A stretch of DNA of 64,000 nt from an uncultured Elusimicrobia bacterium (GCA_945913025.1 CAMECJ010000007.1:1-64000); one strand, 5' to 3'; positions 1,336 to 29,000 are shown, counted from the first letter of the stretch. Notes: generated by a model not told the origin, from the letters alone. Numbers and translations are program-made.

Positions 1336-1361
1336 TCTTTTAAAAATTAGGAGGACGGAGT

Positions 1362-1592: not shown

Positions 1593-1597
1593 TTCGT

Positions 1598-2878: not shown

Positions 2879-2891
2879 CACGGAATAAATT

Positions 2892-8719: not shown

Positions 8720-8729
8720 AGGATATTGT

Positions 8730-11330: not shown

Positions 11331-11353
11331 ATGCGTCAAATTTAGGAGATTAT

Positions 11354-11623: not shown

Positions 11624-11636
11624 GGGGAAGAACCAG

Positions 11637-12575
11637 ATGAAAAAATTATTTGCCGTAGTGCTTTGCGCCACCGTAGCGGGGATGTCTTTTGCTGCTCCCG
11701 CCAAAAAAGCGGCCAAAACGCCCGCCAAGGCGCAGGCTGAATTCGTAATCGTCGAGTCCGACGTTTACGCCGCCGGAAAAGAAGATCCGCAGCTTACTGC
11801 CGGTATCGCCCAGTTTCTGGATATGACTCCGTCCGTTACCCATGTATCTTACAAAGATGCGGCAGCGGACCCGAAGCTTGCCAACTTGGATTACAGCTTT
11901 TTACCGCTTTATTTGATTAAAAAGAATAAAGACGTCCGCGCCAAACTGAAAAAACACTTGGAATACGGGTATGCGCGGGAAAATGATGATTTTATTATTT
12001 TGCCCCGTCAAACCCGCAGCGGTGTGTACAGCGGCAAAACGGCTAAACCGGACGTGATGGAGATTTTTGTAATGTCCCAGTGCCCGTACGGAGTAATGGC
12101 CGAAAACTTGGTGATTGAAGCCCAAAAAGCAGGGACCTTCCCGAAAGATAAAGAAGTCCGCGTGCGCTATATTGTGGATTATTCCGACGAAAAAGGTTTT
12201 AACAGCTTACACGGATCCGGCGAATGGGAAGAAAACGTCCGTCAGCTGCTGATTGCCAAATACTATCCTTCCAAATTCTGGAAATACTTGGAAATCCGCA
12301 ATAAAGATTACCGCTCCAGCCGCTGGGATAAAGCCATGGAGCAGGCGGGTATCAATCCTAAGAAAATTATGAAAAAATTTGATACCGAAGGGTTGGAACT
12401 TTTAAAAGAAGAAGCCAAATACGGTAAAGAATACGGCGTAAACGCTTCGCCTACTTTCTTGTGGGAAGGCCAAGTCCAGTTGGATTTCGGTTCCGCTTCC
12501 AAAATCGACGGCTTTGGTTTTTTAAATCCCAACGCCTCTAAAGCAGACGCCGCCGCTCCCGCAGGCAGCTGCTAA
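11637..12575 (+). CDS. Exported thioredoxin-fold (DsbA-like) protein with single-Cys CPYG motif
   Basis: 312 residues with a signal peptide (residues 1-20, ending SFAAP). An N-terminal region to ~135 of unknown role is followed by a thioredoxin-like domain: strand MEIFVMSQ, then CPYG with Cys149, a helical insertion, and the cis-proline loop NASPT near residue 280. The active site lacks the second Cys of CxxC. The only other visible Cys is the last residue, after a flexible Ala/Pro tail (APAGSC). It could act as a monothiol oxidoreductase or isomerase for the cysteine-containing proteins of this locus; that is an inference. It is the last gene before a strong terminator. Confidence 0.7.
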   Translation: MKKLFAVVLCATVAGMSFAAPAKKAAKTPAKAQAEFVIVESDVYAAGKEDPQLTAGIAQFLDMTPSVTHVSYKDAAADPKLANLDYSFLPLYLIKKNKDVRAKLKKHLEYGYARENDDFIILPRQTRSGVYSGKTAKPDVMEIFVMSQCPYGVMAENLVIEAQKAGTFPKDKEVRVRYIVDYSDEKGFNSLHGSGEWEENVRQLLIAKYYPSKFWKYLEIRNKDYRSSRWDKAMEQAGINPKKIMKKFDTEGLELLKEEAKYGKEYGVNASPTFLWEGQVQLDFGSASKIDGFGFLNPNASKADAAAPAGSC

Positions 12576-12595
12576 CAGAAAAAATTGGCAGAAAG

Positions 12596-12626
12596 CGGGG
12601 GCTGGAATTTTTCCGGCCCCCGTTTT
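12596..12626 (+). terminator. Intrinsic terminator of the first pilus operon
   Basis: Arms 12596-12605 and 12613-12622 form a GC-rich 10-bp stem with one wobble pair, followed by TTTT. It ends the unit that began near position 175. Confidence 0.85.
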
Positions 12627-12640
12627 CCAAAGAAGGAGAC

Positions 12641-12680
12641 TTTTTAACGGACGGACGGCATAGCGCCTTTCCGTTAAAAA
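12641..12680. other. Stem-loop in the leader of the two-component operon
   Basis: Perfect 11-bp inverted repeat: arm 12641-12651 (TTTTTAACGGA) pairs with 12670-12680, with an 18-base spacer. It lies between the terminator of the preceding operon and the histidine kinase gene. It may be a leader structure or an operator; no activity can be read from the sequence. Confidence 0.45.
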
Positions 12681-12784
12681 GCCTTTATAAGCAGCTTCGC
12701 GTGTGGCGGATTGTTTTCGGCGCACCGGACGGAGTCTTTCTCTGTAAGTGCGGGTTTGCCGGACGGAAAGAAAAAGAGCAGAGT

Positions 12785-14683: not shown

Positions 14684-15788
14684 AATTTTAGTCGTGGACG
14701 ACGACAATAACTTGCGCGAAACGCTGGTGGATTTGCTCGAAATTGAGGGCTATAAAGTGTATCAGGCGGGAAGCTCTGCCGAATGTTTGGAGCTTTGCGC
14801 CAGCGAGTTTTTTAACGTAATTCTGATGGATTATAACTTGCCTGATGATACGGGACTGGAACTTATCCGCAAGATCCGCGTGTTCAACCGGGATTCGCAG
14901 ATTATTATGATTACGGCTTACGCTTCCATTAACGCCATTATGGAGGCGCTCCAAGAATCTGTCTACGATTTTTTAATCAAACCCGTGGATTTTGATTATT
15001 TAAAACGCAGCATCAACCGCGCGCTGGACAAGTATTTTCTGGAAGAAAGCAACAAAGCACTGCTTGCCGAGCTGAAAACGCGTAACGAAGATTTGGACCG
15101 TTTAAACAATATGAAATCCAAATTTTTTTCCATTGTGTCGCACGACTTATCCAACTCGCTGATGACGCTTAAAATGAGCTTTGATATGCTGAAAAAGAAA
15201 ATGACGCCCAATGAAGACCAGCAGAAAAAAATGATGTTTATGGATGAATCCGTCGCGCAAATTGAACATTTGATAAAAGACCTAGTGGACTGGGCCGCCA
15301 TTGAAAAAGGCAAACTGCGTATTGAGAAAACCCATTTTGAACTGACGGAAAGTTTAAAGAAAACGGCCGAAATTTTTAAAGCCAAAGCCGCCAAGCGCAA
15401 TATTCTGGTTACGTTTGAAAGCTGCGGTGCGGTGCCCGTATTTGCTGACGAAAAACGGATCCGCCAGGTAATTTCCAATTTGCTTGAAAATGCGGTGCGT
15501 CATACGCCGGATAACGGAACGATTGGAATTGTTGTTAGCAAAATAGATGAAAAAAATGCTAAAGTGTCGGTAGTGGATTCGGGAGACGGGATTGAACCCG
15601 AACAGGCTCCGCACTTGTTTACGAGTTTTATCCAAGTGGGGGCGAAGGACCGTGTAGGCCGCCTGGGACTGGGGTTGTCTATCGCTAAAGATATTGTGCT
15701 CAACCATGACGGCCGCATTTGGGCGCAAAGTGACGGACTGGGCAAGGGGGCATCGTTTAATTTTACGCTGCCGATTGCCAATGCTTAA
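14667..15788 (+). CDS. Receiver-histidine kinase hybrid, cytoplasmic
   Basis: 373 residues with reversed hybrid order. The N-terminal receiver domain has acidic residues DDDNN, phospho-acceptor Asp55 in LMDYNLP, Thr in ITAYAS and Lys in LIKPVDF. A kinase module follows with His159 in SIVSHDLSNSL and a HATPase domain (NLLENAVRHTPD, DSGDGIE, GLGLSIAKDIV). No membrane helix is present. It would receive phosphate, probably from the membrane kinase upstream, and hand it on or act as a checkpoint before the LuxR-type regulator 30 bp downstream. Confidence 0.88.
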   Translation: MEKQIKILVVDDDNNLRETLVDLLEIEGYKVYQAGSSAECLELCASEFFNVILMDYNLPDDTGLELIRKIRVFNRDSQIIMITAYASINAIMEALQESVYDFLIKPVDFDYLKRSINRALDKYFLEESNKALLAELKTRNEDLDRLNNMKSKFFSIVSHDLSNSLMTLKMSFDMLKKKMTPNEDQQKKMMFMDESVAQIEHLIKDLVDWAAIEKGKLRIEKTHFELTESLKKTAEIFKAKAAKRNILVTFESCGAVPVFADEKRIRQVISNLLENAVRHTPDNGTIGIVVSKIDEKNAKVSVVDSGDGIEPEQAPHLFTSFIQVGAKDRVGRLGLGLSIAKDIVLNHDGRIWAQSDGLGKGASFNFTLPIANA

Positions 15789-15818
15789 GATTTTAACAAC
15801 GTTACGGGAGTATACTCA

Positions 15819-16505
15819 ATGAATAAAAAGAAAAAAGTGACGGTGCTGATTGCGGATGACCAAACGCTGTTCCGGGAAGGGATTAAAGACGTACTGACCG
15901 GAGAAAAGTGGATGGAAGTCGTTGGCGAAGCCGCCGACGGTTTGGAGGCCGTAGCCAAGGCCAAACAGCTGAAGCCCGACGTGGTGCTGATGGACATTAA
16001 ACTGCCCAAAATGGACGGTATTAGCGCCACCCGCCAGATCCGTTCGTGCTGTCCAGAAGTCAATGTGCTGATGCTTTCCAGTTTTGAGGACGAAGCCCAC
16101 GTGCTGGACGCCATTCAAGCGGGAGCCAATGGTTACTTATCCAAAATGCTTCCGGCGGTGGAACTCGTTAATTCCATCAAAACATTTACAACCGAAGGGT
16201 TGATGATTCCGCAGCAATTAATGGGTAAGCTGTTGCACGGCCTGCGCAGAATGGGCGACGGCGGAATGCCTACCCAAGCGACGCTGACTAAAACCGAAAT
16301 TAAGGTGTTGGACTTTTTGGGCAAGGGGCTGAGTAATAAAGAGCTTGCCAAAGAGCTTAATTGCAGCGTTAAAACGATTAAAAACCATTTGAACAGCGCT
16401 TTTCATAAATTGGGCGTTTCCAGCCGCACGGAAGCGGTGGTAAAAGCGATTGAAAAAGGGTTGATTTCATCGGAAGGAACCATAGTTTCCGAAGAAGAGG
16501 AATAA
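15819..16505 (+). CDS. NarL/LuxR-type response regulator
   Basis: 228 residues. The receiver domain has Asp59 in LMDIKLPK and the usual Lys in NGYLSKML. A C-terminal LuxR helix-turn-helix covers about 150-215 (LSNKELAKELNCSVKTIKNH). The length and linker are standard. It starts 30 bp after the hybrid kinase and is the only DNA-binding output of this signalling set. Its nearest possible targets are the pilin-like genes directly downstream and the promoter at 18.4 kb. No binding site was identified. Confidence 0.9.
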   Translation: MNKKKKVTVLIADDQTLFREGIKDVLTGEKWMEVVGEAADGLEAVAKAKQLKPDVVLMDIKLPKMDGISATRQIRSCCPEVNVLMLSSFEDEAHVLDAIQAGANGYLSKMLPAVELVNSIKTFTTEGLMIPQQLMGKLLHGLRRMGDGGMPTQATLTKTEIKVLDFLGKGLSNKELAKELNCSVKTIKNHLNSAFHKLGVSSRTEAVVKAIEKGLISSEGTIVSEEEE

Positions 16506-16510
16506 TTTTA

Positions 16511-16687
16511 ATGTGTTTAAAAGGGCCGCATAAAGTATTTTTACTTCGGCAGAAAGGACAGGCAACTATCGAATATGTGCTTATGCTTGCGACGATAGTT
16601 GTTGTTCTGGCGGCCTTTTTAACCGCGTTTAACACGCATATTGTACGTTTTTTCTTTTCCTTTATTGGGATGTTGTTGACGAACTGA
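16511..16687 (+). CDS. Second Flp-type pilin-like protein (58 aa)
   Basis: ATG 16511 to TGA 16687. The signal is RQKGQATIEYVLMLATIV: predicted cleavage Gly16/Gln17, Glu21-Tyr22 at +5/+6, then one long hydrophobic helix and a short hydrophobic tail (FFFSFIGMLLTN). It starts five bases after the response regulator and ends one base before the next gene. It is probably a Flp paralogue of the pilin at 1.36 kb, in a separate set with its own TadE/TadG-like partners. Confidence 0.75.
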   Translation: MCLKGPHKVFLLRQKGQATIEYVLMLATIVVVLAAFLTAFNTHIVRFFFSFIGMLLTN

Positions 16688-16688
16688 T

Positions 16689-17804
16689 ATGAAAATACTT
16701 CGCCGGTGTATTTGGAAATTACAAGACCGCAAGGCGCAAATTTTGCTGCCTTCGGTTCTTTTGGCGCCTATTTTCGTGCTGGTCATCTATTTGTTGTTTG
16801 AAACCGCTAAGGTTTCTATGTCCAAGGTCCGCCAGCAGTTTGCTTTGGATAATGCGGCGTATTCCCAAATGTCCTCCGCCAGCACGTATTTAAACGCGGT
16901 GGCAATGGTAAACGGTCCGCTTCCGTACCGCGTAATGCTGTATTACGCAAACGAAGCCCCTCTATTAAATGCCTCAGAGAAAGCTCAGGCGAACGGCTTG
17001 CCGCCTCAAATTACTATTTTTAAATTATTTTACGAGGGCGGCGGTATTCCGGCTATTGGGCCTGATTATGAAACGGGGGTAAACCCACCGCCTGCCGCTG
17101 AATCGATAGACTGGGGGTTAAAATATTCTAGCAAAGCGGATACTCCTTCTCGTCGGGATTGGGAAAAAGAAAAGCCGGCCGCCCCTCCCAGTGAACATGT
17201 TGTAATGATGAGTAAAGACTTGCTGGATAATTATTATTTTCCGCATACAATGGCAATTCCGGTCATTACGCAGTATTTAACCAATTTTGCTTATGTAAGA
17301 AGTATCTATGAATCGCAGTCTTATGTATATAAAGAAGTGAGTAAAAATGCAATTATGTTCCGGGAAGCATATTATTTAAATGTCAACGATTGTAAGCGTT
17401 CCGAATGTGCACGCCAAAGTGCTTCTACAATACGCCAGTTTACTACATTGGGTACTATTCCGTTTGAAATACCTCAGTTGCGGTTTTATATTTCCGATTC
17501 AGATAAAAGCGGAGTAATCGGTTCTGCTTATCACGTAGACTTTAACTCCCGGGATTTGTTAGATAAAGACTTGTTCCAATTTGCCTATTTAAATCCGTCT
17601 AGTTCAAGCAAGCTGCGTACTTTGGCGCGCGGGGTTTTATTGAAACAATCCTTTAAATTGCCCCGAAACCATTTTAATATTAATTTGGAGCAAAAATATA
17701 AGCCGTATGTTCGCACCCGTGTGCAACTGCTTTGTCCGCGTTCCAGCAATAATTGCGTATGGCCGAATCCATTACCTAAATACGGCGTAAAATTGGAACC
17801 TTAA
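16689..17804 (+). CDS. TadG-like large pseudopilin
   Basis: 371 residues. A prepilin-like N-terminus (DRKAQILLPSVLLAPIFVL) gives one membrane helix at about 17-38 followed by a ~330-residue exported domain. The predicted processing site would be Ala16/Gln17, and +5 is Pro rather than Glu, so processing by a prepilin peptidase is doubtful. This agrees with TadG-type proteins, which keep the helix but vary at the signal. The exported part carries several Cys (CKRSECARQ; LCPRSSNNC) that could form disulfides. Gene order Flp, TadG-like, TadE-like with 1-2 base gaps indicates an operon. Confidence 0.7.
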   Translation: MKILRRCIWKLQDRKAQILLPSVLLAPIFVLVIYLLFETAKVSMSKVRQQFALDNAAYSQMSSASTYLNAVAMVNGPLPYRVMLYYANEAPLLNASEKAQANGLPPQITIFKLFYEGGGIPAIGPDYETGVNPPPAAESIDWGLKYSSKADTPSRRDWEKEKPAAPPSEHVVMMSKDLLDNYYFPHTMAIPVITQYLTNFAYVRSIYESQSYVYKEVSKNAIMFREAYYLNVNDCKRSECARQSASTIRQFTTLGTIPFEIPQLRFYISDSDKSGVIGSAYHVDFNSRDLLDKDLFQFAYLNPSSSSKLRTLARGVLLKQSFKLPRNHFNINLEQKYKPYVRTRVQLLCPRSSNNCVWPNPLPKYGVKLEP

Positions 17805-17806
17805 CT

Positions 17807-18352
17807 ATGGAAAGAGCATTAACTTTTTTTTCTTCCCGCAAAGGGCAGGCGACCACAGAAACCGTGCTGCTGTTTCCGCTTTTTGTGATTTTCATTTTGT
17901 TTATTATCAAAATTTTCGGACTGTTGATTTTAAACCAAAAATTGGAAATTGCTGGCTATTATGCGGCGCGGCGTTTTCAGCTGCAATCCCACGAAACGGA
18001 TTATTATGCCAACACATGGGACAGGCGCTTTTTGATAAAAGATATTCAGAAAAAAGTGGAAAACTATTTGGGTTTTGATAACCCGGGTATGAAGAAATTT
18101 TTAAGCTTAAATACGTTAAAGATGGACGTTAATGTTTCCGGTACGTGGGTAAAAATTACCATTACCGCGCGCACGAAGCCGCCGCGCATTCCTTTTTTGT
18201 GCAAGTATAATAAAGACAGAGTGTGCGACAAAGACGATAAATGCTTAAAAGGATATGCCTTCCTGTGCGAGACAGGCGGCGAGGTGCGTATTATTAAATA
18301 TGTGGGCCATAACGAACGGCCTGCTCCGTATCAGCGCCCTGAAGAAAAATAA
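17807..18352 (+). CDS. TadE-like pseudopilin, second copy
   Basis: 181 residues. The class III signal SSRKGQATTETVLLFP gives cleavage Gly13/Gln14 and Glu18 at +5, with a hydrophobic helix to ~35. The exported domain contains a cysteine cluster around FLCKYNKDRVCDKDDKC and FLCETGG that the TadE protein at 1.6 kb lacks. It begins two bases after the TadG-like gene and closes the second pilin set. Confidence 0.78.
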   Translation: MERALTFFSSRKGQATTETVLLFPLFVIFILFIIKIFGLLILNQKLEIAGYYAARRFQLQSHETDYYANTWDRRFLIKDIQKKVENYLGFDNPGMKKFLSLNTLKMDVNVSGTWVKITITARTKPPRIPFLCKYNKDRVCDKDDKCLKGYAFLCETGGEVRIIKYVGHNERPAPYQRPEEK

Positions 18353-18399: not shown

Positions 18400-18428
18400 T
18401 TGACAAACGCGTATTTTCTGCCTATACT
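18400..18428 (+). promoter_or_regulatory. Near-consensus sigma-70-type promoter
   Basis: TTGACA at 18400-18405 and TATACT at 18423-18428 are separated by exactly 17 bp. Transcription would start near 18435, about 80 bp before the first gene of the unknown envelope cluster. Confidence 0.8.
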
Positions 18429-18517
18429 AAAGGAGTAAGCTGAAAACTCTTTGTTTGAGTATACCTGCGGGTATGGGTCAACGAGAGTTATTTATATTAT
18501 TATGTAAAGGGGTTTTT

Positions 18518-19966
18518 ATGTTTAAGTTAAAGCCGGGAAATGTATTTCAAAAAATAAATACAATGGACAAAAAACAAGCTTACACGTGGGCAGCTGTGGT
18601 GGTGGTTTGTTTAATTGCGCTGATTACGCTGGCTTCTTTTTTGGGAGATGCGGAAGATACTTCTTTTGACGGGTTTAATACCCGCGGGTATGATTTGGCG
18701 CAGATGCCCTTTGTAAACGACGAGGCGGAAGAATACTTGTTGGCTTCCAAGTATCCGGATATGCAAAATAACGGCGCCGCGATGCTTTACAGCCAAGAAG
18801 AAAAAGAAGCCCGCCAGGAAGCGGATGCCGAAAAATCCGCTGCGGACGGAGAGGATGCAGATTCAGATTCGGACGCCGCAGCCTCTTCTTCAGGCGGTTA
18901 TGCGTCGCGCGGCTATTCCGGCCGCGGCGGCGGTGCGGGCGGCGGATCGCCCACGCAGGTAGGGTCGCTCGGTTCGGCCAGTATGGGCCACGCGGGCGGC
19001 AGCGGCGTGAACAGTACCTTTGGCGCCCCCAGGGGGGATTTTTCTCCTTATAAAAGCCAGGAGAAAGGCTCGGAAATCCAGTACCAATTAAAAAATTCGG
19101 ATGCGCGTAAAGCGCTTTCGCAGTTTGCGCGGGGCAGCAGTGCGGCTGCAGGGCTGATGAACGGTAAAGGAGGAAACGCCAAAAAAGCGTTGATGGGGGG
19201 CAATATTAAGGGCAGTAATGCCTTTACGGAAACGGGGGTAGACCTCAGTAAAGCAGGCGGTTTGGCGCTAGATACAAATGCTCCAACTTCTTCTGCGGAT
19301 TTAAGCAATTTGGAAAAGAATGTAGGAGACGGGGCCAATAACGCAAAAGACGATAAAGATGATTTTAATAACGACCTTCAAGAAACTTTTTGGGATAAGC
19401 TGATGCAGCAGCTGGTTAGTGGTATTGTGGAAGGATTAACCAGTTCCTTTAACGAATGGTTAGGGAATCAGGTGGACCAATGGCAGACGAATCGAGAGGC
19501 AAGGGGTCTTGCAAATGATTATATGCGGGGGCAAAGTGATAAATTTTATGGTATGGATGCGAACTCTGCTGATGTGCCTGACTACATTAAAGATAAAGAC
19601 TGGTATAAGGAAGGTGTGGGTAATACCTTGGGAGAAAGGTATAGTGATTATCAAAACCAACAAAAGGTAAATACTTGGATAGAAAACCATCCAGAGTCCA
19701 CTTGGCAGGAGCAAAGAAACTATTTTCTTGATCATAACGAAACGCAGACGCCAAAAGATTTTTATAAAAATGAGATGCAGTCTACATTTAATGACCATCG
19801 GGAAGAAGGCAGTGTTTGGTATACTGCTAATCAAAAAAAACACGATTATATAAGCGCCCATGGGTCCGGAAATAGGAGTTCTTCTTCGTCGAATAGTGAT
19901 TGTGTGAAAAAATGCAACAGCATACAAGATTCCGAAAAGTATAGATCGTGTGTAAATAAATGTTAG
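18518..19966 (+). CDS. Membrane-anchored low-complexity protein with C-terminal twin CX3C motif
   Basis: 482 residues. ATG 18518 is chosen because AAAGGGG lies at the right distance and MFKLKPGNVF opens a normal cytoplasmic leader; an in-frame TTG at 18455 is less likely. A single helix (TWAAVVVVCLIALITLASFL) lies at about residues 27-46. Acidic and then Gly/Ser-rich low-complexity sequence follows to ~240, then a hydrophilic helical region. It ends with CVKKCNSIQDSEKYRSCVNK plus a final Cys, a CX3C-X10-CX3C pattern able to make two disulfides. I do not recognise the family. It is the first gene after the promoter at 18.4 kb and shares its architecture, not clear sequence, with the next proteins. 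Confidence 0.7.
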   Translation: MFKLKPGNVFQKINTMDKKQAYTWAAVVVVCLIALITLASFLGDAEDTSFDGFNTRGYDLAQMPFVNDEAEEYLLASKYPDMQNNGAAMLYSQEEKEARQEADAEKSAADGEDADSDSDAAASSSGGYASRGYSGRGGGAGGGSPTQVGSLGSASMGHAGGSGVNSTFGAPRGDFSPYKSQEKGSEIQYQLKNSDARKALSQFARGSSAAAGLMNGKGGNAKKALMGGNIKGSNAFTETGVDLSKAGGLALDTNAPTSSADLSNLEKNVGDGANNAKDDKDDFNNDLQETFWDKLMQQLVSGIVEGLTSSFNEWLGNQVDQWQTNREARGLANDYMRGQSDKFYGMDANSADVPDYIKDKDWYKEGVGNTLGERYSDYQNQQKVNTWIENHPESTWQEQRNYFLDHNETQTPKDFYKNEMQSTFNDHREEGSVWYTANQKKHDYISAHGSGNRSSSSSNSDCVKKCNSIQDSEKYRSCVNKC

Positions 19967-19989
19967 CAAGTAACCGTTAGGAGGAATTT

Positions 19990-21564
19990 ATGAATATCTT
20001 TAAATGGATAAGGTGCAGGGCCGGAAAGATGGCTCTTTCCACTATACAGACGATGGGGCTCTCGGCCGTCGTCGGTGCGGCGGGTATTGCCGCTTGGCAG
20101 TATTTGGGTTCCCCCGCGGAAACGAATAATACATTTACTCCTGCGGCTTATGACCCGGGTGAAGTGGTGTATGTGGCGGGGGCGAATACGGGCTCTTATG
20201 CGGGCGGTTCGTATGCCGGCGGAGGGGAATCGGCGTCCTCTGTGCAGATTTCTACTAATACGTTTAAACGCTTGGAACAGCAGGAAATGGCGCGTCAGGC
20301 AGAGGCGGAAATGGCTGAATATGCGCCGGATTATTCTTCTGTGCCTTCCACTCCCACCCAAGTCTATCAAATGGGCGGCACGGAAGGTTTGGGAACAGGG
20401 GCGAACGCCGTTAATGAATTTAATGTACAGACCAACCCTATGGCCGCTATGCAGCAGCAGATAAAGGGCGTGTCGGATATCGTAGCAAGAGCGCAGCAAC
20501 AAGCCCAGCCGCAGCCTCAAGCTCCTGCGCCTGCTTCGGGTGCGCCGCAAGGGCTGCCTGCTTTGGCCAGCGCTTCTAAAAATTGGGGTTCTTCCGCGGC
20601 TACCGGCGGCTCGTCCGGCAATGCGTTTAACTCGTCTTTCTCGGTGCAGGACAGCGGGAAAAATGGAAAAGGATCAGACGCTTTAAAACAAGTCGGTAAT
20701 CTGATGGATTCTGCTCAAAATACGCTAAGAAATACAATGGAGGGAGCTCGTTTGCGTGCCCAATCTTCGTTTGGGAGTGAAAATCTGGGCGGAAACCGCG
20801 ATGCTACCGTGCTGGCGGGGGGTAAAGATTCCAAAGAAGCCAGAGATTTAAAATTTATCAGCAAGCGTTCCAATGATGCTGCTAAAAATAAATTCAGAGC
20901 CGCAAATGAAGGCTCGCGTGCCTTTTTAGCCAGTAATAAAATTTCAGGCGGTTTGATGATTTCCAGTGAAAATGTGACTACGGGGCAAGGCCAGGGGTCT
21001 AAAGATTTTTCAGCGGATGAAAGTGTCCAATTGCGCGGAATCAAAACGTGGGAAACATCGCCTGGTAATACCGTTGATCTTGAGCAACGCAAAAAAGCCC
21101 GTGATGATTTACGCAAATGGGTTTGGATAGCTGTGCCTGCTGCCTTGGCTTCAATTCCATGGATTTGTCTTCTTGTGTTCCTAGGTACTTCAACCCCATG
21201 GCCTATAAATCTTCTCTGGTGGTCATTGGCTATTATACTCGCAGGTACTTTAATTGGTCTTAATGCTACTTTATTGGCAAAGAGTGTTTCCTATGCTAAA
21301 ACATATGGAGGGTCGTCCTTATCAACTTGGGCTGGCATATTAGGTGGAACTGTTGCCACGATGGTTGGTCTTAGTTTGGTGCCAGCGGTTGGTAGTATAC
21401 TAGGCCCATATTCCGCTTGGTTATTGTCAGGGGGTGGTGCTCTCGTCGGTTTAGGCTCTTCTTGGTTAACAACAGGGTTAACGAAAGATAATGAATTGGA
21501 TAATCCTGAGGCTTTGCTCAATCCGGAGATTGATGCTTCACAAGGGAATGGAGGTAATTCATGA
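19990..21564 (+). CDS. Unknown envelope protein A: N-terminal anchor, conserved motif, four C-terminal helices
   Basis: 524 residues. An N-terminal hydrophobic segment (about 13-36) is followed by ~250 residues of Ala/Gly/Ser/Gln-rich sequence. A conserved block lies at residues ~286-324 (FISKRSNDAAKN, then RAANEGSRAFLA and SGGLMI). Four predicted membrane helices occupy about residues 375-505. The block and four-helix domain recur in the protein at 21879-23363, so the two are paralogues. A good ribosome site AGGAGG lies before ATG 19990. The stop overlaps the next start (ATGA). No known domain was recognised. Confidence 0.7.
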   Translation: MNIFKWIRCRAGKMALSTIQTMGLSAVVGAAGIAAWQYLGSPAETNNTFTPAAYDPGEVVYVAGANTGSYAGGSYAGGGESASSVQISTNTFKRLEQQEMARQAEAEMAEYAPDYSSVPSTPTQVYQMGGTEGLGTGANAVNEFNVQTNPMAAMQQQIKGVSDIVARAQQQAQPQPQAPAPASGAPQGLPALASASKNWGSSAATGGSSGNAFNSSFSVQDSGKNGKGSDALKQVGNLMDSAQNTLRNTMEGARLRAQSSFGSENLGGNRDATVLAGGKDSKEARDLKFISKRSNDAAKNKFRAANEGSRAFLASNKISGGLMISSENVTTGQGQGSKDFSADESVQLRGIKTWETSPGNTVDLEQRKKARDDLRKWVWIAVPAALASIPWICLLVFLGTSTPWPINLLWWSLAIILAGTLIGLNATLLAKSVSYAKTYGGSSLSTWAGILGGTVATMVGLSLVPAVGSILGPYSAWLLSGGGALVGLGSSWLTTGLTKDNELDNPEALLNPEIDASQGNGGNS

Positions 21565-21869
21565 ACCCAAAACGGCCCCCGAAGTTGGAAGATTTACAAG
21601 AAACGATCCGTAAAGCTCAGCAGCTGCCCCGTCCCCTTGTATGGAGTTTGCGTATTGCTTTTATGGTGTTGTTTTTGGTGTGGCTCGGCGGAGCTGTTTA
21701 CTTGCATCTCGTGGTTAAAGAAGACGAGCGGGCGATTGCCAGAATCCAGCAGCAATCCCAGCAAAAAGAGGAGCGTCTGCGGCGGGAGGCAGCTTACCGC
21801 CAATTTGTATTGCAGCAGCAAAATCCTCAGAACAAGGTTAGGAACGCGGTGGACGGTGTAAAAAAATAG
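21561..21869 (+). CDS. Small single-helix membrane protein with coiled-coil tail
   Basis: 102 residues: a cytoplasmic leader rich in Pro/Lys, one helix at about 30-52 (LRIAFMVLFLVWLGGAVYLH), then a charged Gln/Glu/Arg-rich helix (IARIQQQSQQKEERLRREAA) likely to form a coiled coil. The start overlaps the stop of protein A by four bases, and protein B follows after nine bases. Tight coupling between the paralogues suggests a stoichiometric partner, comparable in shape to FtsL/DivIC-type bitopic proteins, though no homology is claimed. Confidence 0.68.
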   Translation: MNPKRPPKLEDLQETIRKAQQLPRPLVWSLRIAFMVLFLVWLGGAVYLHLVVKEDERAIARIQQQSQQKEERLRREAAYRQFVLQQQNPQNKVRNAVDGVKK

Positions 21870-21878
21870 GAGAGTTTT

Positions 21879-23363
21879 ATGAACTTATTTAATCTCTTAA
21901 AAAGTAAAGCCGGAAAATTTGTGATGGGGGCTTCCCAAGCAGCGGGAGTTTCGGCAATGGTGGGTATATTAAGCGTTTCCGTCATGTACAATACGGCATC
22001 CGAGCAGCTTGAGGACCAGCCCATCCGTACTTCTTTTTCCGCTTCTGATTCATATAACTATGAAGGCTTAAACCGCCGTGCGGACGGGATGTTGACCTCT
22101 ATGAACATCCAAAACCGTGCGGGCCGGCAAGGCGTAGCTATAGGAGCCGACCGCGAACGGTTGGAAGGAACGGCCTCAAACAATGATTTCGGTCTGGCGG
22201 CCGCGGATAATTTGGGGAAACGCATTTCTGTCCCTAACGTGGGAAGTTCTGCTGTGGTTTCCGAAACCGACGGTTTAGGTACCGGCGGCGTGGATATGAC
22301 GGAAATTCCGGCGGGCGTGAGAACAGGCGCCCCCGGTTCTTCACCTGCGGGCGTTCCTCCCGTTTCGGTTTCGTCTCGGGCGCCGGCCGCTCCTACTGCC
22401 GCCGCTCCTACTGCGCCCGCTGCCTCCGGCGGAAATTCGGGCGGACGTTTGGCCCCTGCCTCTATGGCCCGCGCATCGGGAAATTCTTTTAACGCGTCGT
22501 CCGGTTCTGTGGGGGGCGGTGCGTCCGGCGGTACCGCCGGCAGACGGAATGCCCCTTCCCGTCCGGAAGGGTATAACTTTTCCGGTTCGATGCCCGGCGG
22601 TTCCAATATGGTTTCCGCTTATGAGACGTTGGGTAAGGGCGGCAACGGTTCCACTTTTATAGCAGGGGGCCGTGGTTCTACTGCTGGCCCAGGGCGCCGT
22701 TCGTTAAAAAATAAAGATAATGATTTAAAAGATATTTCCAAACGTTCGGCGGATGCCGCGCGGAACAGCAATCGTGCCGCGAACGAAGGCTCGCGCGCGT
22801 TCTTGGCCGGAGGCCAGAACTCGGGCGGTATGGTAATTGACAGCGGGGAAGAGCTGGCGACTACGGGTTCTGCAGATTTTGAAACTCCGACGAATAGCAA
22901 CTTAAAGGCAATTGGCAATTGGGAACAACTAGAGGATGATTTCGGCGACCGCAAAGCCAAAGCCCGCAAAAAATTGACGTGGATGTGGTTGGGTACAATA
23001 GCAGGCGGTATTGCGTTGCTGTATGCGGCGGCATTTGCCTTATCAGCGCTTAAAGGGCCATGGTATTGGGTGGTCGCGGGCCTTTTTTTGGCGGCAATAG
23101 CCGTTCCTTGTTTCTTTTTAATAAAAGAAGCCATGGCTTATAAAAAAGATTTTGGCAGGGGGGCGAGTGATGTCTTGATGACAATAATTTGTTCCCTTAC
23201 AGGCTTTGCATTAATAGGTGGTATGACGTTTACCTGTATTAAACCCGATGTGGCAAAAAAGTGGCTGACGACCAAGATGGTAAAGAAATTAATTGGTTTG
23301 GCAAGCAGTGTAGGTCTGGGGCTTATTATGAGTACTATGATGAGCGGATTCAGCGGAAAATAA
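21879..23363 (+). CDS. Unknown envelope protein B: paralogue of protein A
   Basis: 494 residues with the same plan as the protein at 19990: an N-terminal hydrophobic segment (about 11-33) and long Gly/Ala/Ser/Pro-rich sequence. The conserved block lies at ~282-320 (DISKRSADAARN, RAANEGSRAFLA, SGGMVI). Four predicted C-terminal helices follow (~365-490). The N-terminal leaders also align (MN-F---K--AGK). Most of the central region is repetitive and probably disordered or fibrous. A G-rich ribosome site precedes ATG 21879. A hairpin lies just after the stop. Function unknown. Confidence 0.7.
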   Translation: MNLFNLLKSKAGKFVMGASQAAGVSAMVGILSVSVMYNTASEQLEDQPIRTSFSASDSYNYEGLNRRADGMLTSMNIQNRAGRQGVAIGADRERLEGTASNNDFGLAAADNLGKRISVPNVGSSAVVSETDGLGTGGVDMTEIPAGVRTGAPGSSPAGVPPVSVSSRAPAAPTAAAPTAPAASGGNSGGRLAPASMARASGNSFNASSGSVGGGASGGTAGRRNAPSRPEGYNFSGSMPGGSNMVSAYETLGKGGNGSTFIAGGRGSTAGPGRRSLKNKDNDLKDISKRSADAARNSNRAANEGSRAFLAGGQNSGGMVIDSGEELATTGSADFETPTNSNLKAIGNWEQLEDDFGDRKAKARKKLTWMWLGTIAGGIALLYAAAFALSALKGPWYWVVAGLFLAAIAVPCFFLIKEAMAYKKDFGRGASDVLMTIICSLTGFALIGGMTFTCIKPDVAKKWLTTKMVKKLIGLASSVGLGLIMSTMMSGFSGK

Positions 23364-23374
23364 ATGACTGTTTT

Positions 23375-23408
23375 ACAGCAGTGGGATGACTAATCATTCC
23401 ACTGCTGT
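23375..23408 (+). terminator. Hairpin between envelope genes, possible attenuator
   Basis: Arms 23375-23389 and 23394-23408 pair over 15 bases with one wobble and a four-base loop. The T-run after it is short (TTTCC), so it may only partly terminate and reduce expression of the next gene. Confidence 0.55.
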
Positions 23409-23422
23409 TTCCTTGTATTTTT

Positions 23423-24967
23423 ATGCCAAACGAAACCGAAACCGAAAAAGAACAGCAGGAAAAACAACCGTTTTTCTCTGCCGTGTGGGAAGAAACCAAA
23501 AGCGCTTTTTGTTCCAAAAAAGCGTGGATGATTCTCGTGTTCTTTTTGGTTTTGTTGGTTATTGGCGGATTGGTGCCGGTGGGCAAAATCCCGTTTTTGC
23601 GCAATTTGGCGTATGCAATGGGATATACGCCGGATGAAACCGAAAAAATTTCGCTCTTGCGGGCGCTGTTTTCGTGGAATGAACATCAAAAAATTTTGCG
23701 CGGGGAACTGCCGGATCCGGATGCCGTATCCGTCTTTGGCGAGGGCGGCGGCTTTTTGGCTGCTTCCGCTGCGCCGGCGCAAAATAAACTGATTAATCTG
23801 CGCGCCGTTAATGATTCGCTTGCGCGCAAAGGCCAGGCGCAGGACGTGCTGAGTATGTTTTCTTCTACAGGCAATATGGGGGAGGATGCCCGTCCTTCGG
23901 ATATTAAAATCGGCAATACGACCGTTTCCGCCACCACGCGCGCCGATGCGGCTAAAACCGGAGAGGTATTTTTCGGGGCAGACGCATCCGCCGTCGTGCG
24001 GGATAAAACACACGGATACGATTCCATCGGTGCGCTTAAAAAAATCGCTAATCCGAATATTACGGGTGTCGTTTCGGACGATTGGATGGGCCGCCTGGTG
24101 GATAAAGCCACCCGCTCGGATTCCGGCCTGGCCAATATCGCCAAGAATATCGATAAAGGCGGTACGCTTACCGGTTTTGGCGGTGTGCAGGAATTGGGCC
24201 AAAGCCGCGCCCAGCGGGATATGTACCACGCGTGGCTGTATGGCAAGGCGGCGCGCCGTACGCCTAATCCTATTTTGAAAAAAACCTTGGCTTCCGCCAG
24301 TTTTGATAGTGTGGAAATGCCGCGGTCCGTATTTTCCGCGTCGGGATTTTCCGGCGTGGGAATTAACCCCGATGACGTAGTAGCCGATATGGACAGCGTA
24401 AAAAAATATTTGGAATTGGATCAAACCTGCCAGCAGTCGATTAGTCAAGTAGGCGATGCCGTGGGGCAGCTGAAAAGTGATATATATACTATGGTAAAAG
24501 GCCTGCGTTTCCCCGCTACGTGTGAGGAAGCCGCAGGCAGCAATTACGGCAGCCAACTATCCACGATTACGGAGAAGTGTCTTTCCATACGCAGCCAATA
24601 TACGAACAACTTGGACGAAAGCTGCAATATCAGGGGTACGCAAGGCAGCTGTTCAACTGAAACACTCTCCGGACGGTTTAACGAATACCGCGCTTATTGC
24701 AACGAGGCGCAGGCCCAGTGCAACCTGCTGACGGATCCGGCCCAGCAAGACGCATGCCGGAGCGACATTAAAACGGCGGAAAATTTTACAGGCGAAACTT
24801 TTTGTGACCCTAACTGCGGTTCTGCAGCTGTGTCCGAAGCTACGCAAAATACGTTTAACGTAGATGAAAACGGGGATCCCGTCGATCGGGATGACGACCG
24901 GAACATCAGTCCGTTTACGCCGGGACTGGATATGAACTCAGGCTTTTGGGTGGGAAATGCGGACTAA
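23423..24967 (+). CDS. Membrane-anchored protein with cysteine-rich C-terminal domain, unknown
   Basis: 514 residues. A charged cytoplasmic leader of ~33 residues, one helix (WMILVFFLVLLVIGGLVPVG), and a long exported part. The last ~180 residues contain more than ten Cys (e.g. CEEAAGSNYG, CSTETLS, AYCNEAQAQCNL, FCDPNCGSAA), so an oxidised, disulfide-bonded domain is likely. No known domain was recognised. It follows protein B after the hairpin at 23.4 kb and precedes the 1253-residue protein. Membership of the cluster rests on anchoring, composition and orientation. Confidence 0.68.
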   Translation: MPNETETEKEQQEKQPFFSAVWEETKSAFCSKKAWMILVFFLVLLVIGGLVPVGKIPFLRNLAYAMGYTPDETEKISLLRALFSWNEHQKILRGELPDPDAVSVFGEGGGFLAASAAPAQNKLINLRAVNDSLARKGQAQDVLSMFSSTGNMGEDARPSDIKIGNTTVSATTRADAAKTGEVFFGADASAVVRDKTHGYDSIGALKKIANPNITGVVSDDWMGRLVDKATRSDSGLANIAKNIDKGGTLTGFGGVQELGQSRAQRDMYHAWLYGKAARRTPNPILKKTLASASFDSVEMPRSVFSASGFSGVGINPDDVVADMDSVKKYLELDQTCQQSISQVGDAVGQLKSDIYTMVKGLRFPATCEEAAGSNYGSQLSTITEKCLSIRSQYTNNLDESCNIRGTQGSCSTETLSGRFNEYRAYCNEAQAQCNLLTDPAQQDACRSDIKTAENFTGETFCDPNCGSAAVSEATQNTFNVDENGDPVDRDDDRNISPFTPGLDMNSGFWVGNAD

Positions 24968-24990
24968 TATAAAAAGCGCAAAATTCCCCC

Positions 24991-25018
24991 TTGAAAAAAC
25001 GAAATTTAATTGTATAAT
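24991..25018 (+). promoter_or_regulatory. Promoter for the 1253-residue protein gene
   Basis: TTGAAA 24991-24996, 16-bp spacer, TATAAT 25013-25018. The start site would be near 25025, leaving a leader of about 165 bases. Confidence 0.75.
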
Positions 25019-25024
25019 AGAAAT

Positions 25025-25189
25025 AGGGATATGTTCATACAAGTTGTTACGGAGTGGGGGACCATCTTCGAACAACAAACTTTTTATTATGGTTATGGTG
25101 TAAAACGGGAGGCTTTTCCAAAAGTCTGCCCGGGCAGTGAGGGGCCCGCCCTCGCTTTTGCAGTTTTAAAAAATTAACAGGAGGCTCTT
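25025..25189 (+). promoter_or_regulatory. Long structured 5' leader
   Basis: About 165 untranslated bases between the promoter and ATG 25190. The 3' part is very GC-rich with overlapping complementary arms: CGGGC with GCCCG, and GAGGG with CCCTC, cannot both pair. A ribosome site AGGAGG stands just before the start. It matches no riboswitch class I recognise. Confidence 0.45.
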
Positions 25190-28100
25190 ATGCCTGAAGA
25201 AAAAAAGGATAAAAAAGTTGTTCCTTTGGCTGGAAACGAGGCCAAAAAGGACAGCTTTACTTTTAGCGATAAGATCAAGAACAGCAAACCTGCCGCTTCT
25301 AAATCTTTCGCTAACCGTATTTCTTCCAAGATTGGGAGCGACGGTAAACCTAAAAAAACTCTTTTTGAGAGGACCAAAAGAGATGCGCCGTTCTTTATTG
25401 CGGCGCTTGCGGCGCTTTTGTTGCTGCCGTTTTTGTATAAATACTCCGGCAGTATAGAAGAAGAGCCTTCTATGGTTACCCCGGGTTTGGAAGGAACGGA
25501 GTTTGATCCCACCCGTTCCGGCTTTGATACGCTGACGGGCGACCCCGAAAACCAGATTGCGCAGCTTTCCGGCCGTGATTCGCTGTCTTTAATCAAGGGC
25601 TTTGGCGGCGAGCCGGCAGAAGCTTCGGACGAACTTCCGTACAGAAGCGATTTGGAGAGAAGCGGTTTTGATGATGATTACGGCAGATCCAGCAATCGGA
25701 CGAGTGAACGTAACGAAACAAACATCACACGGTATCGCAAACAAGCCGCGCCCGCTACGCGCGCCGCTTTTAAGAAGACCAATATCAATCCGCTCCGCAG
25801 TGCGGGGTTGACCTCGCGCGGCGGCGGAAAATTAGGTGTTGGAATGTGGGGCGGCGGGCTGAAGCAGGCCGCTAACCGTGTGCAAGCGGAGGCGCCAAAA
25901 TCTTCCCCCAAACCGGTTTCCTTGCAGCCGCTGCAGGCGGCGGGGAAACCTTCCCGTTCGTATTTCGGCCAAGGGGCGGCGGCGGAAGCCAGACGCTCCA
26001 AAGACGCTATGTCCAAAGCCAATGCGGTGCAGGCCCTGCGGGACGCGCAGATGCGGGCCATTGAACCCGGTAAAATCGGCGGTATTCTCAGCGGAGAGAC
26101 GGGCGGCCCTGGCGGCGGTAACGGTAAGTTGGAGCGCAACTTTGCCTACAACGGTAAAGAGCCTTGGTGGTGGGACATGATGAAAAAACGCTCCCAAATG
26201 GAGTGGGAGAAATGGTTCAACTACAAATGGGGTTGGATTGACTGGGCCACCGGACTTGCGCAAAAACTGGCCGACGGTTTATTGTCCTGCTTGATTACGG
26301 GTACCGACGATTGGTCTATGGGTAAGATGTTTGGGGCTAAAGAAGGAAGCGGAAAAGACCCAACGTGTTGTGGTGTCAAGGAAAAGAACTGGCAAGGTTT
26401 TATTGGTACTACTTCCATTCCTTTTAGTAAAGAAGCTTGCGACGGTTTGAAAAAGAATCCGCAATATGCCGAAAAATGTAAAGACGGTTGGGATCCTGGT
26501 TCCAAAGCGGAATCCAATTTGGGCTTTTTCGGCGCTCGTTGGGATTGTCTGACCAACGGGGCTTTAAATGCCCGCAAAAATCGTAAAGCCTCCGAAGGTT
26601 TAGCGGAAGAAGGCGACTGCAATACCTTCTACAAAGACGGTCGTTATACCGCCTCGTACAGCGGCAAATATTCCCTGTACCATTATATTGTGGGTGTACG
26701 CAGCACTGATTGGACGAAATATGTTAATGGTTCAAATGATGACCGCTATAGTTTGTTATATGTCGGGTATATAGGCAAGGGCGCCACTTTCTCCGTCAAT
26801 CCGGAGGTTACAGGACAGCTGATTAACCGCAAAGCGTTTATTCCGCTGTTTATTGAAAGCGTTGCTGTAAAAAGTAAAAAAGTAAAAAATAAAGGAGTCG
26901 GGGATAAAGTAACGACATCCGCTGGTGACGATGATGAAGAAGCACGGATGGCGGCTTTGGTGAGCAAAAAAGGCAAAGCCACGGAATTAAAATATAAGGA
27001 TTTGCTGGACAAATTAAGTCACGGCGGGTTTAGAGCGAGCAATCAAGAAGACGGAGGCTCGGTATTAATGTCTGTGAAAGGCGGCAAACGCGGCAAAAGC
27101 TGGGAAACGGGCGCGCGCTGTGCGTATCCTTTGGCGTTTGTTTCCTGCCACAATACGGCTATAGCTACAGATGCCTTTGGGAAACTGAATACAAAGGGTA
27201 ATCCGGCTGCGTTTTTAATGTTCCCCAATGTGGGTAAAACAGATGATGCTGTATGGAAAGATGTGCACCAAATGTTCGTCGCAACGTACAGAGTGGAAGA
27301 CCGTTTGAATGAAAAGGATGTTCCACTGGGCTATTTTGCAGTGACGAATGACAATTCGCAGGGCTATGCTCCTGACGATAGGAAGGTGAAAGGGAAGGAC
27401 GGCTCTCATAATCGAGTGAATACATACAACATTGCTGCTTCCGGAGAAGGCGCCAAAGCCGTACTCAATGCTATGGGTGGAGAAACTGATGCTTCCAAGT
27501 CTGCCGCGGTAACGTGGGAAGTCCGCCAAAACTGGGATGCTGAAACGCCGTGGAGCCACGGCAAGTTTATTGCCTCCGGCAGCGGCCAGAATTTTAATTC
27601 TAAGACTGGCGGAGTGGAAGCACAAGCCTTGCCCGGTATTGTAGTATCGTCTGCCACCTGTGTGTACGGCGACGAAGGCGAAGTTGTTAGTATTGAGCCG
27701 GATCCCCAGACAGACTGCAAGAAAGGAGAGCGTGAAACGAGACAAAATCCCAACGATGGTTGTGATGAAGAGCGCACTTGCCCGAATGGATACTGGACCG
27801 ACTGGGGAAAAAAAGATCCTAACTGTAGCTGTAAAGACGGAACAGAGCAAAGTTTGCCGGATGAGCCGAAAGGCTGTCACTGGAAAAAAGTCTGCGCAAA
27901 TAATCAATGGGGAGATCCTGTTAATACAAATCCGAACGATCCCGCTTGTAAGGGTACTACTCCCCCGACTCCGCGCACTAAAGTAAGTTTTTATACCAAC
28001 TTTACTGACATGCCGGAGCAGGTCTTGTCGGTGCCGGCGCGTTCTAATCCGAGTTCCGACAATGCAGGTAATCTGTGGAAGAGCTGTAAGATTCAGGATA

Positions 28101-28951
28101 TGTCGAACACGCCGATTTTTATGGATTCGGAAACTACCGAATTCTTGAAACAGGCTATTGATAGTTATAATGGTAGGGCAAAAGAGACTGAAATGAACGC
28201 CTATGCACAACAGATTGGTGAGAATGGCGCGATGGTGGCTCAAGTGGTAGATGCTATGCGCATTATGCAAGCCGTAGGGAAAAAAGATGTGCCGAAAAAT
28301 ACGGTTTGCGCGGTAGGTAAGGCGATTGCCATTCAGTCTAAAGATCCGCAGGTTACTACACGGAGAAATGCATTGGGTTCCTTTTTGGCCTTTATTAACA
28401 TAGACTCTTCGTTCTACCCTGCGCATTACTATCGGAAGGAGAATGAGCCAGAAACGGCAAAACATAGAGATGATCGTTTCTACGGTTGCGCAGGTGGAAA
28501 AGCTCAACAATATGATGGTACCGATATGTCTGGCTACCACTATGGCCTTTATAACTGGAATGAAAAGAAGTATGGAGATCTGAAACTAAATAATACTACA
28601 GACAGAGAACCCTATATCGAAGAATTGAAGCAAGGCATCTGGAAGGATTTTCCGTTGAGAGCATTGGCTAAAAAGGGAGATACTCCTCTGTTTACTCGTG
28701 TAGACGAAGGTACGTTAGATGGAAGCACCAATAAGACGATTGATGATGTGAACAGACAACTGTATCATAGGAAGTATCAGAGTCTGTTGAGGATCGGACA
28801 GACTTGTGGATATGGAAACGATACAATGAGTATAGAGGATGCGTTAAAATATATTCAAGTGTTATGTGCAAGTGGCGCCCAACAGAAACCTACGAATGGC
28901 CGTGCAAATCTGTGTAGCAGAGCGTATAAAGAATCTGAGTATGCGCCGTAA
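25190..28951 (+). CDS. Giant membrane-anchored cysteine-rich envelope protein, unknown
   Basis: 1253 residues. A basic cytoplasmic leader of ~63 residues, one helix (FFIAALAALLLLPFLYKY), then an exported region. Residues ~75-310 are low-complexity. From ~320 a Trp-rich part (EPWWWDMMKKRSQMEWEKWF) opens a globular region with many Cys. At 843-920 two ~40-residue repeats each carry several Cys (C-x2-G, then GC-x4-C and a Trp). The C-terminal ~300 residues are globular and unrecognised. The gene has its own promoter, leader and strong terminator, so it can be expressed apart from the five cluster genes before it. It could be a surface adhesin or the main structural part of an envelope machine; both are guesses. 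Confidence 0.72.
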   Translation: MPEEKKDKKVVPLAGNEAKKDSFTFSDKIKNSKPAASKSFANRISSKIGSDGKPKKTLFERTKRDAPFFIAALAALLLLPFLYKYSGSIEEEPSMVTPGLEGTEFDPTRSGFDTLTGDPENQIAQLSGRDSLSLIKGFGGEPAEASDELPYRSDLERSGFDDDYGRSSNRTSERNETNITRYRKQAAPATRAAFKKTNINPLRSAGLTSRGGGKLGVGMWGGGLKQAANRVQAEAPKSSPKPVSLQPLQAAGKPSRSYFGQGAAAEARRSKDAMSKANAVQALRDAQMRAIEPGKIGGILSGETGGPGGGNGKLERNFAYNGKEPWWWDMMKKRSQMEWEKWFNYKWGWIDWATGLAQKLADGLLSCLITGTDDWSMGKMFGAKEGSGKDPTCCGVKEKNWQGFIGTTSIPFSKEACDGLKKNPQYAEKCKDGWDPGSKAESNLGFFGARWDCLTNGALNARKNRKASEGLAEEGDCNTFYKDGRYTASYSGKYSLYHYIVGVRSTDWTKYVNGSNDDRYSLLYVGYIGKGATFSVNPEVTGQLINRKAFIPLFIESVAVKSKKVKNKGVGDKVTTSAGDDDEEARMAALVSKKGKATELKYKDLLDKLSHGGFRASNQEDGGSVLMSVKGGKRGKSWETGARCAYPLAFVSCHNTAIATDAFGKLNTKGNPAAFLMFPNVGKTDDAVWKDVHQMFVATYRVEDRLNEKDVPLGYFAVTNDNSQGYAPDDRKVKGKDGSHNRVNTYNIAASGEGAKAVLNAMGGETDASKSAAVTWEVRQNWDAETPWSHGKFIASGSGQNFNSKTGGVEAQALPGIVVSSATCVYGDEGEVVSIEPDPQTDCKKGERETRQNPNDGCDEERTCPNGYWTDWGKKDPNCSCKDGTEQSLPDEPKGCHWKKVCANNQWGDPVNTNPNDPACKGTTPPTPRTKVSFYTNFTDMPEQVLSVPARSNPSSDNAGNLWKSCKIQDMSNTPIFMDSETTEFLKQAIDSYNGRAKETEMNAYAQQIGENGAMVAQVVDAMRIMQAVGKKDVPKNTVCAVGKAIAIQSKDPQVTTRRNALGSFLAFINIDSSFYPAHYYRKENEPETAKHRDDRFYGCAGGKAQQYDGTDMSGYHYGLYNWNEKKYGDLKLNNTTDREPYIEELKQGIWKDFPLRALAKKGDTPLFTRVDEGTLDGSTNKTIDDVNRQLYHRKYQSLLRIGQTCGYGNDTMSIEDALKYIQVLCASGAQQKPTNGRANLCSRAYKESEYAP

Positions 28952-28962
28952 AGTCTCAATCT

Positions 28963-29000
28963 ATCCCCGAGAGGAGTTTTCCTCTCGGGGATGATTTTTT
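28963..29000 (+). terminator. Strong intrinsic terminator
   Basis: A 13-bp perfect stem (28963-28975 with 28980-28992), four-base loop, and TTTTTT at 28995-29000. It closes the envelope cluster. Confidence 0.92.

What the first reader, a model, noticed from the sequence alone, without database searches (positions are those of the whole stretch)
18400..29000. Unrecognised cluster of membrane-anchored envelope proteins next to Tad pilus genes
Six consecutive genes encode bitopic or polytopic proteins (102 to 1253 residues) with long Gly/Ala/Ser-rich regions and Cys-rich exported domains, none matching a family I know. Seen in the sequence: two strong promoters, tight coupling of three genes, a final strong terminator, and location directly after a kinase/regulator set and a second pilin set. 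Inference: they build one envelope complex, perhaps the base, sheath or cargo of a modified Flp apparatus.
Basis: partly seen in the sequence, partly recalled or inferred. Interest (0 to 1): 0.8.

Follow-up and report, generated by a model that had tools for sequence, protein, structure and literature searches.

The report
Envelope module of Elusimicrobia Tad pilus
Six neighbouring genes that match no described family turn out to be a conserved block at the end of the pilus locus of a whole class of bacteria (Elusimicrobia), and most likely build an inner-membrane-anchored scaffold that lets an unusual Tad pilus cross and grip the cell envelope.

Summary
Six genes (A-F, 18518-28951) follow tadG-tadE2, encode membrane-anchored proteins with no family match, and lie between an 11/12 promoter match and a strong terminator.

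The cluster is not a genus oddity. F was found in 189 of 341 Elusimicrobiota genomes, only in one class. All F-bearing families also carry the fused TadZ-TadA ATPase of this Tad type. The order tad ... tadG-tadE2-A-B-D-E-F recurs in two distant families. F lies 20-23 kb downstream of tadZ-tadA in 37 of 39 congeners with both on one contig. Linkage is broken in family f2 (0 of 43, though A-F stay together elsewhere) and in the E. minutum genus, where F stands without B/D.

A, B, D and E are related to each other, F weakly so; B and D are clear paralogues. N-termini are conserved and distal ends diverge. In seven relatives F ends in a degenerate OmpA-like, wall-binding-type domain, absent from this window's F.

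Most likely A-F form a periplasm-spanning accessory scaffold or wall anchor of a class-specific Tad pilus. Membership in the Tad locus is well supported; the scaffold role is inference. The two structure predictions were too poor to test it.

The parts
1156..2083 (+). Two Flp-like small pilins (1156-1335, 1362-1592) and TadE1 (1598-2083)
   Evidence: PF07811 TadE E 9.7e-11; Flp_Fap / Flp1_like below cut-off, with GQTAVEY and GQNTIEY type III signals
2123..3638 (+). CpaB/RcpC (2123-2878) and short CpaC secretin (2892-3638, 248 aa)
   Evidence: PF16976 E 8e-18; PF00263 E 9.4e-42
3646..6168 (+). Fused TadZ-TadA (CpaE-CpaF) ATPase, 840 aa
   Evidence: PF00437 E 4.9e-61 at 384-663 with an N-terminal MinD/ParA-like region; in 142/149 genomes of the order
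6207..10193 (+). TadB (6207-7829), TadC (7829-8719), TPR protein (8730-10193)
   Evidence: PF00482 E 8.8e-17 and 2.6e-15; TPR
10209..16505 (+). HAMP protein, small TM protein, Dsb-like protein (11637-12575), two kinases (12785-14683, 14667-15788), NarL-type regulator (15819-16505)
   Evidence: HAMP PF00672 E 3e-5, just below cut-off; the rest from sequence; block order conserved across the class
16511..18352 (+). Third Flp-like pilin (16511-16687), TadG-like (16689-17804), TadE2 (17807-18352)
   Evidence: PF04021 class III signal E 2.5e-4, below cut-off; PF07811 E 4.2e-5; position immediately before A conserved
18400..18428 (+). Promoter-like site before A (TTGACA-17-TATACT)
   Evidence: 11/12
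18518..19966 (+). Gene A: N-in bitopic protein, 482 aa
   Evidence: Alignment A1; HMM-HMM to f2 A family E 2.7e-15
19990..21564 (+). Gene B: linker plus helix-pair motif plus C-terminal TMs, paralogue of D
21561..21869 (+). Gene C: small bitopic protein, TM then probable coiled coil
   Evidence: conserved position in most loci read
21879..23363 (+). Gene D: paralogue of B; disordered 46-275, helix pair 276-311, TM helices 348-477
   Evidence: AF2 model, mean pLDDT 43, low confidence
23375..23408 (+). Stem-loop, possible terminator between D and E
23423..24967 (+). Gene E: N-terminal TM, conserved PVGKIPLLRNLAYAMGY stretch, Cys-rich distal part
   Evidence: homologous to f2 E family at 264-420, E 8.7e-6
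24991..25018 (+). Promoter-like site before F (TTGAAA-16-TATAAT)
   Evidence: 11/12
25190..28951 (+). Gene F: 1253 aa, one TM; conserved N-terminal third, variable Cys-rich distal part
28962..28993 (+). Intrinsic terminator after F

Best explanation
A-F encode an inner-membrane-anchored, periplasm-spanning accessory complex of a class-specific Tad (type IVc) pilus machine in Elusimicrobia. A, B, D, E and possibly F derive from one ancestral protein: a cytoplasmic N-terminus, a transmembrane helix, a long flexible Gly/Ala/Ser linker, a short conserved helical motif, and then a member-specific end. In B and D that end is a polytopic membrane domain; in E and F it is a Cys-rich, probably disulphide-bonded exported domain. 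C is a small, probably coiled-coil partner. The conserved N-terminal halves would assemble around the IM motor and platform (TadZ-TadA, TadB, TadC, CpaB). The linkers cross the wall, and F, the longest and most conserved member, reaches peptidoglycan or the outer membrane with an exchangeable distal domain. The complex would do the secretin-to-wall anchoring and alignment that CpaD and CpaI do in Caulobacter; no gene with a CpaD or CpaI role was recognised in this locus. Shown: gene set, order, class-wide distribution, linkage, paralogy (strong for A-B-D-E, weak for F), N-conserved/C-variable gradient, OmpA-like ends in some F. Inferred: assembly into one complex, location, anchoring role.
For: Superlocus porV-tadE1-cpaB-cpaC-tadZA-tadB-tadC-TPR-HAMP-...-kinases-narL-tadG-tadE2-A-B-D-E-F is colinear in f15 (G214, G230) and in f1 genera g14 (G094), g1 and part of g15, with the small TM and Dsb genes variable. 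F lies 20.0-23.3 kb downstream of tadZA on the same strand in 37/39 g1 genomes with both on one contig, 28.7 kb in g14, 32 and 38 kb in two f15 genomes. F occurs in 189/341 genomes, all from families with strong tadZA matches; by my count 181 of the 189 have a detected tadZA, and families without a strong match have no F. HMM-HMM with reversed and shuffled controls: A-B 69 vs <=23, B-D 265 vs <=41, B-E 44 vs <=22, D-E 50 vs 35, A-F 31 vs <=15. Identity falls along F 84-62-33-27-18-32% and along A 64 to 22%. PF00691 finds F's C-terminus in 7 genomes of g12/g15 (E 1.6e-4 to 0.012), 7 of the 11 sub-cut-off hits in 22 genomes. Caulobacter CpaD (OmpA-like collar) and CpaI (bridge): PMC13170226.
Against: In all 43 f2 genomes scored, F and tad are on different contigs. 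E. minutum keeps F without detectable B/D and away from tad. G030 and G111 carry A-F away from tad. OmpA-like hits are below Pfam's cut-off and absent from F of this window, of the f2 genomes tested and of f15. Families f3, f10 and f11 have the tadZA type but no F found. Tad and F are both clade markers, so co-occurrence is not independent evidence. AF2 models were poor (mean pLDDT 43 and 37.5), so no fold supports the assignment. Distal hypervariability also fits a surface-displayed role.
Confidence: 0.5

Rival explanations
1. Displayed cargo: the conserved N-terminal parts are an anchor and export signal, and the variable Cys-rich ends of F, E and A are adhesins or contact factors presented through or beside the Tad secretin, like exchangeable pilus tips.
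For: F and A are conserved near the N-terminus and divergent distally; F carries many Cys and in relatives Pro/Thr-rich or Gly-rich stalks (L040); within genus g12 two F have OmpA-like ends and one does not; Myxococcus Kil pili have exchangeable, disulphide-rich tip proteins (PMC12075869); a Dsb-like gene is in the locus.
Against: No prepilin-type G-x4-E motif before the N-terminal TM in A-F, whereas TadE1/TadE2 have it; B and D are polytopic; OmpA-like ends in some F point to the wall rather than outside.
Confidence: 0.25
2. Independent envelope complex (for example wall or division related) that merely sits next to tad in some lineages.
For: Unlinked in f2, where the cluster lies by a murC-like gene; near kdsA/lptB genes in E. 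minutum and G030.
Against: Same tadE2-A junction region in two families of the class; family-level distribution nested inside that of the tadZA type.
Confidence: 0.2
3. Surface-contact sensor: A-F transmit pilus or wall strain to the kinases and NarL regulator encoded between tadC and tadG.
For: Kinase, hybrid kinase-receiver and NarL genes lie inside the superlocus in the linked genomes read.
Against: The two-component genes stay with tad, not with A-F, where the two separate (f2, E. minutum).
Confidence: 0.05

Closest known systems
Caulobacter Tad/Cpa machine, CpaD and CpaI (PMC13170226)
   Same: Same core (CpaB, secretin CpaC, CpaE/CpaF, CpaG/CpaH, TadE-type minor pilins); an OmpA-like wall-binding element associated with the secretin
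   Different: Here TadZ and TadA are fused, the secretin is only 248 aa, no CpaD or CpaI gene was recognised, and the candidate wall-binding element (F) is an inner-membrane protein within a partly paralogous gene set
Myxococcus Kil system with exchangeable Tip complexes (PMC12075869)
   Same: Tad machine with extra genes whose distal, Cys-rich domains vary between lineages
   Different: Kil tips are TadE/F/G-type minor pilins with a prepilin cleavage site; A-F lack a prepilin motif and B/D are polytopic
OmpA-like domain (PF00691)
   Same: C-terminal part of F in seven g12/g15 relatives gives a weak match
   Different: Below the family cut-off, and not detected in this window's F

Membership tests
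Tad / type IVc pilus locus | TadA-type ATPase, TadB and TadC platform proteins, TadZ | tested here: met
   PF00437 E 4.9e-61, two PF00482 genes, MinD-like N-terminus fused to TadA
Tad / type IVc pilus locus | Secretin and CpaB/RcpC | tested here: met
   PF00263 E 9.4e-42, PF16976 E 8e-18
Tad / type IVc pilus locus | Flp-type pilins and TadE minor pilins | tested here: met
   TadE over cut-off for two genes; three small Flp-like ORFs with type III signals but below Pfam cut-off
Tad / type IVc pilus locus | Prepilin peptidase | tested here: met
   One PF01478 gene in the genome at C3:102160, outside the locus
Tad minor pilins / Kil-type Tip (for A-F) | Prepilin motif G-x4-E before the first TM | tested here: not met
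   Absent before the N-terminal TM in A-F; present in TadE1/TadE2
CpaD-like wall anchor (for F) | OmpA-like wall-binding domain | tested here: inconclusive
   Weak PF00691 hits in 7 relatives, none in this window's F
CpaD-like wall anchor (for F) | Outer-membrane lipoprotein | tested here: not met
   F has an internal TM at 65-83 and no N-terminal lipobox in its sequence
Any described protein family (A-F) | Match above a curated cut-off | tested here: not met
   Pfam, NCBIfam; PHROGs and PADLOC only short C-protein matches near 1e-3; no meaningful PDB match for A4, A2, A3 profiles

The most novel reading that the evidence does not exclude
A-F are a new type of envelope-spanning machine part: a heteromeric assembly made from paralogous, mostly disordered inner-membrane proteins sharing a docking motif, which arose once in Elusimicrobia and replaced the usual alignment and wall-anchoring parts of a Tad pilus.
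Probability: 0.3. Interest if true: 0.8.

Novelty: new variant of a known kind. Interest (0 to 1): 0.6.

Why it matters
A Tad superlocus conserved across a whole, barely cultured class carries six or more undescribed envelope proteins. If they are part of the machine, Tad pili come in a second build whose periplasmic section is made of unrelated, largely disordered proteins, and a system thought to be well catalogued would have a clade-specific core that sequence-based detectors miss. It also gives uncharacterised genes in gut Elusimicrobia, including cultured E. minutum (F only), a concrete, testable role.

Tried and rejected
Rejected: genus-specific oddity (F profile found class-wide). Rejected: obligate linkage to tad (f2, E. 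minutum, G030, G111). Rejected as loss: missing F in G003, G100 and G113; the tad contig ends at or just after tadG in G003 and G113 and within B in G100, so these are probably assembly gaps. Tried, no use: PDB sequence searches of F, B/D and E profiles gave only chance-level hits; AF2 of F 346-1253 (mean pLDDT 37.5) and D (43.1) too poor for a fold search, so none was run. I suspected by eye that F of G092 ends in the g1-type domain; an HMM test against shuffled controls did not support it. g1 F C-terminus versus OmpA-type C-terminus: no HMM-HMM similarity. No F match in phages. Weak database hits (TrbC, IcmF, OqxB, DUF4191) were all far below cut-off and dropped. Whether A-F occur outside the phylum could not be tested well: the single genome-contig scan used one close-relative query.

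Full report
Setting. The window is contig C7 of a 1.76 Mb genome. A close-relative search returned Elusimicrobia records (UBA1436, a sheep-colon Elusimicrobiaceae MAG). G091, a single contig of 1,643,562 bp, is taken to be Elusimicrobium minutum from my own knowledge of its genome size.

What is there. Before the finding lies a complete Tad locus: Flp-like pilins, TadE1, CpaB, a short secretin, a fused TadZ-TadA ATPase, TadB, TadC and a TPR protein. A HAMP protein, a Dsb-like protein, two kinases and a NarL regulator follow, then another Flp-like pilin, TadG and TadE2. Genes A-F come next, bounded by an 11/12 promoter match and a 14-bp-stem terminator; F has its own 11/12 promoter match. None of A-F passes a family cut-off, and PHROGs and PADLOC give nothing meaningful.

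Conservation in the genus. In seven of eight inspected relatives A-F sit at the same place and in the same order after tadE2 and, usually, before a TPR gene plus ksgA. C was not found in G016, and the TPR/ksgA pair is not next to F there. A-F diverge much faster than the machine: about 30-60% identity in the cluster against roughly 75-93% for tadZA, cpaC and tadC. Within F the first 90 residues are 84% identical, residues 91-345 62%, and the rest 18-33%; A drops from 64 to 22%. The conserved stretch includes the long linker, so that linker is constrained.

Distribution. A profile of the F N-terminus first found F across the order and weakly beyond it. Adding those sequences (A7) gave 189 of 341 genomes, in families f1, f2, f9, f12, f13 (one genome), f14 and f15 of one class, and none outside the class. 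The RDP-x-SL[IV] motif and the residues around the TM are shared widely. The same 341 genomes searched with the fused TadZ-TadA give strong matches in all those families and in f3, f10 and f11; elsewhere matches are weak or absent. By my count from the two lists 181 of the 189 F-bearing genomes also have a match; the eight without are MAGs of varying quality.

Linkage. On single contigs F is 20.0-23.3 kb downstream of tadZA in 37 of 39 g1 genomes, about 20 kb in three g15 genomes, 28.7 kb in g14 and 32 and 38 kb in two f15 genomes. Reading the DNA between shows that the same superlocus runs from porV through tadE2 into A, B, several D copies, E and F. Two distant families share it, so the linkage is either ancestral to much of the class or arose repeatedly. 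It is broken in f2: in G046 the tad block ends at tadG-tadE2 and the A-F cluster lies elsewhere between a murC-like gene and dnaX/recR. In E. minutum the tad block also ends at tadE2; F lies alone near kdsA and no B/D was detected.

Relatedness inside the cluster. In f2 the families are clean enough for HMM-HMM comparison. B and D are paralogues (E 2.2e-34). A is related to B (3.7e-8) and B and D to E (1.4e-4, 2.4e-5), above reversed and block-shuffled controls, although for D-E the reversed control is fairly high (35 against 50). F is weakly related (score 31 against at most 15 for A-F). One F-E shuffle scored 137, a reminder that low-complexity profiles can misbehave. The common architecture is N-in TM, linker, a short helical motif and a distal part. 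A low-confidence AF2 model of D shows the linker disordered, a helix pair at 276-311 over the conserved motif, and TM helices after 348.

Distal ends. PF00691 (OmpA) finds the C-terminus of F in E. minutum, a second g12 genome and five g15 genomes at E 1.6e-4 to 0.012, all below the family cut-off; they are 7 of the 11 sub-cut-off hits among 22 genomes. It does not find this window's F, the f2 F tested or the f15 F, and the g1 C-terminus is not similar to the OmpA-type end. The distal domain therefore differs between genera, and within g12.

Mechanism. In Caulobacter, CpaD (OmpA-like lipoprotein) collars the secretin and contacts peptidoglycan, and CpaI bridges secretin and CpaB (PMC13170226). 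No gene with those features was recognised in this locus, and the secretin is short. An inner-membrane family with wall-crossing linkers and, in some lineages, OmpA-like ends is a reasonable replacement. This is inference. The main rival is display of variable domains at the cell surface, as in Kil tips (PMC12075869), but A-F have no prepilin motif before their N-terminal TM.

Novelty. [quoted passage not shown] none of the literature found here describes A-F. I file the whole as a Tad locus with a new accessory module, not as a new system.

Limits. Genomes are mostly MAGs; co-occurrence within one clade is not independent evidence; linkage rows were transcribed by hand from tool output into the script; names of organisms are mostly unknown; structure prediction gave nothing usable.

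Noticed in passing
3646-6168: TadZ and TadA are fused into one ATPase (840 aa; about 745 aa in many relatives); matches in 142/149 genomes of the order, nearly always single copy, so it looks like a class-level marker of this Tad type.
   Followed up: yes
2892-3638: The CpaC secretin is only 248 aa, with the secretin domain starting near residue 87; no CpaD or CpaI gene was recognised after it.
   Followed up: partly
1156-1335, 1362-1592, 16511-16687: Three small Flp-like pilin ORFs, one directly before tadG, easily missed at usual ORF cut-offs.
   Followed up: partly
L103, L101, L104: In G003, G100 and G113 the tad contig ends at or inside the A-F module, suggesting that the region is hard to assemble.
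   Followed up: partly
L040:6986-11206, L079:16191-19862: F of G030 carries a collagen-like Gly-rich repeat and F of G046 a TPxSP proline-rich stalk before the distal domain.
   Followed up: no
L096-L100: B/D-type genes are multiplied in G094 and G230 (several copies each), so copy number of this paralogue varies.
   Followed up: no
L091:5037-7547: In f15 genomes G210 and G194 a long, probably secreted protein (836-887 aa) follows F; the G210 one has no Pfam match.
   Followed up: no
G070:C23: In G070 F lies about 15 kb upstream of tadZA instead of downstream; possible rearrangement or misassembly.
   Followed up: no
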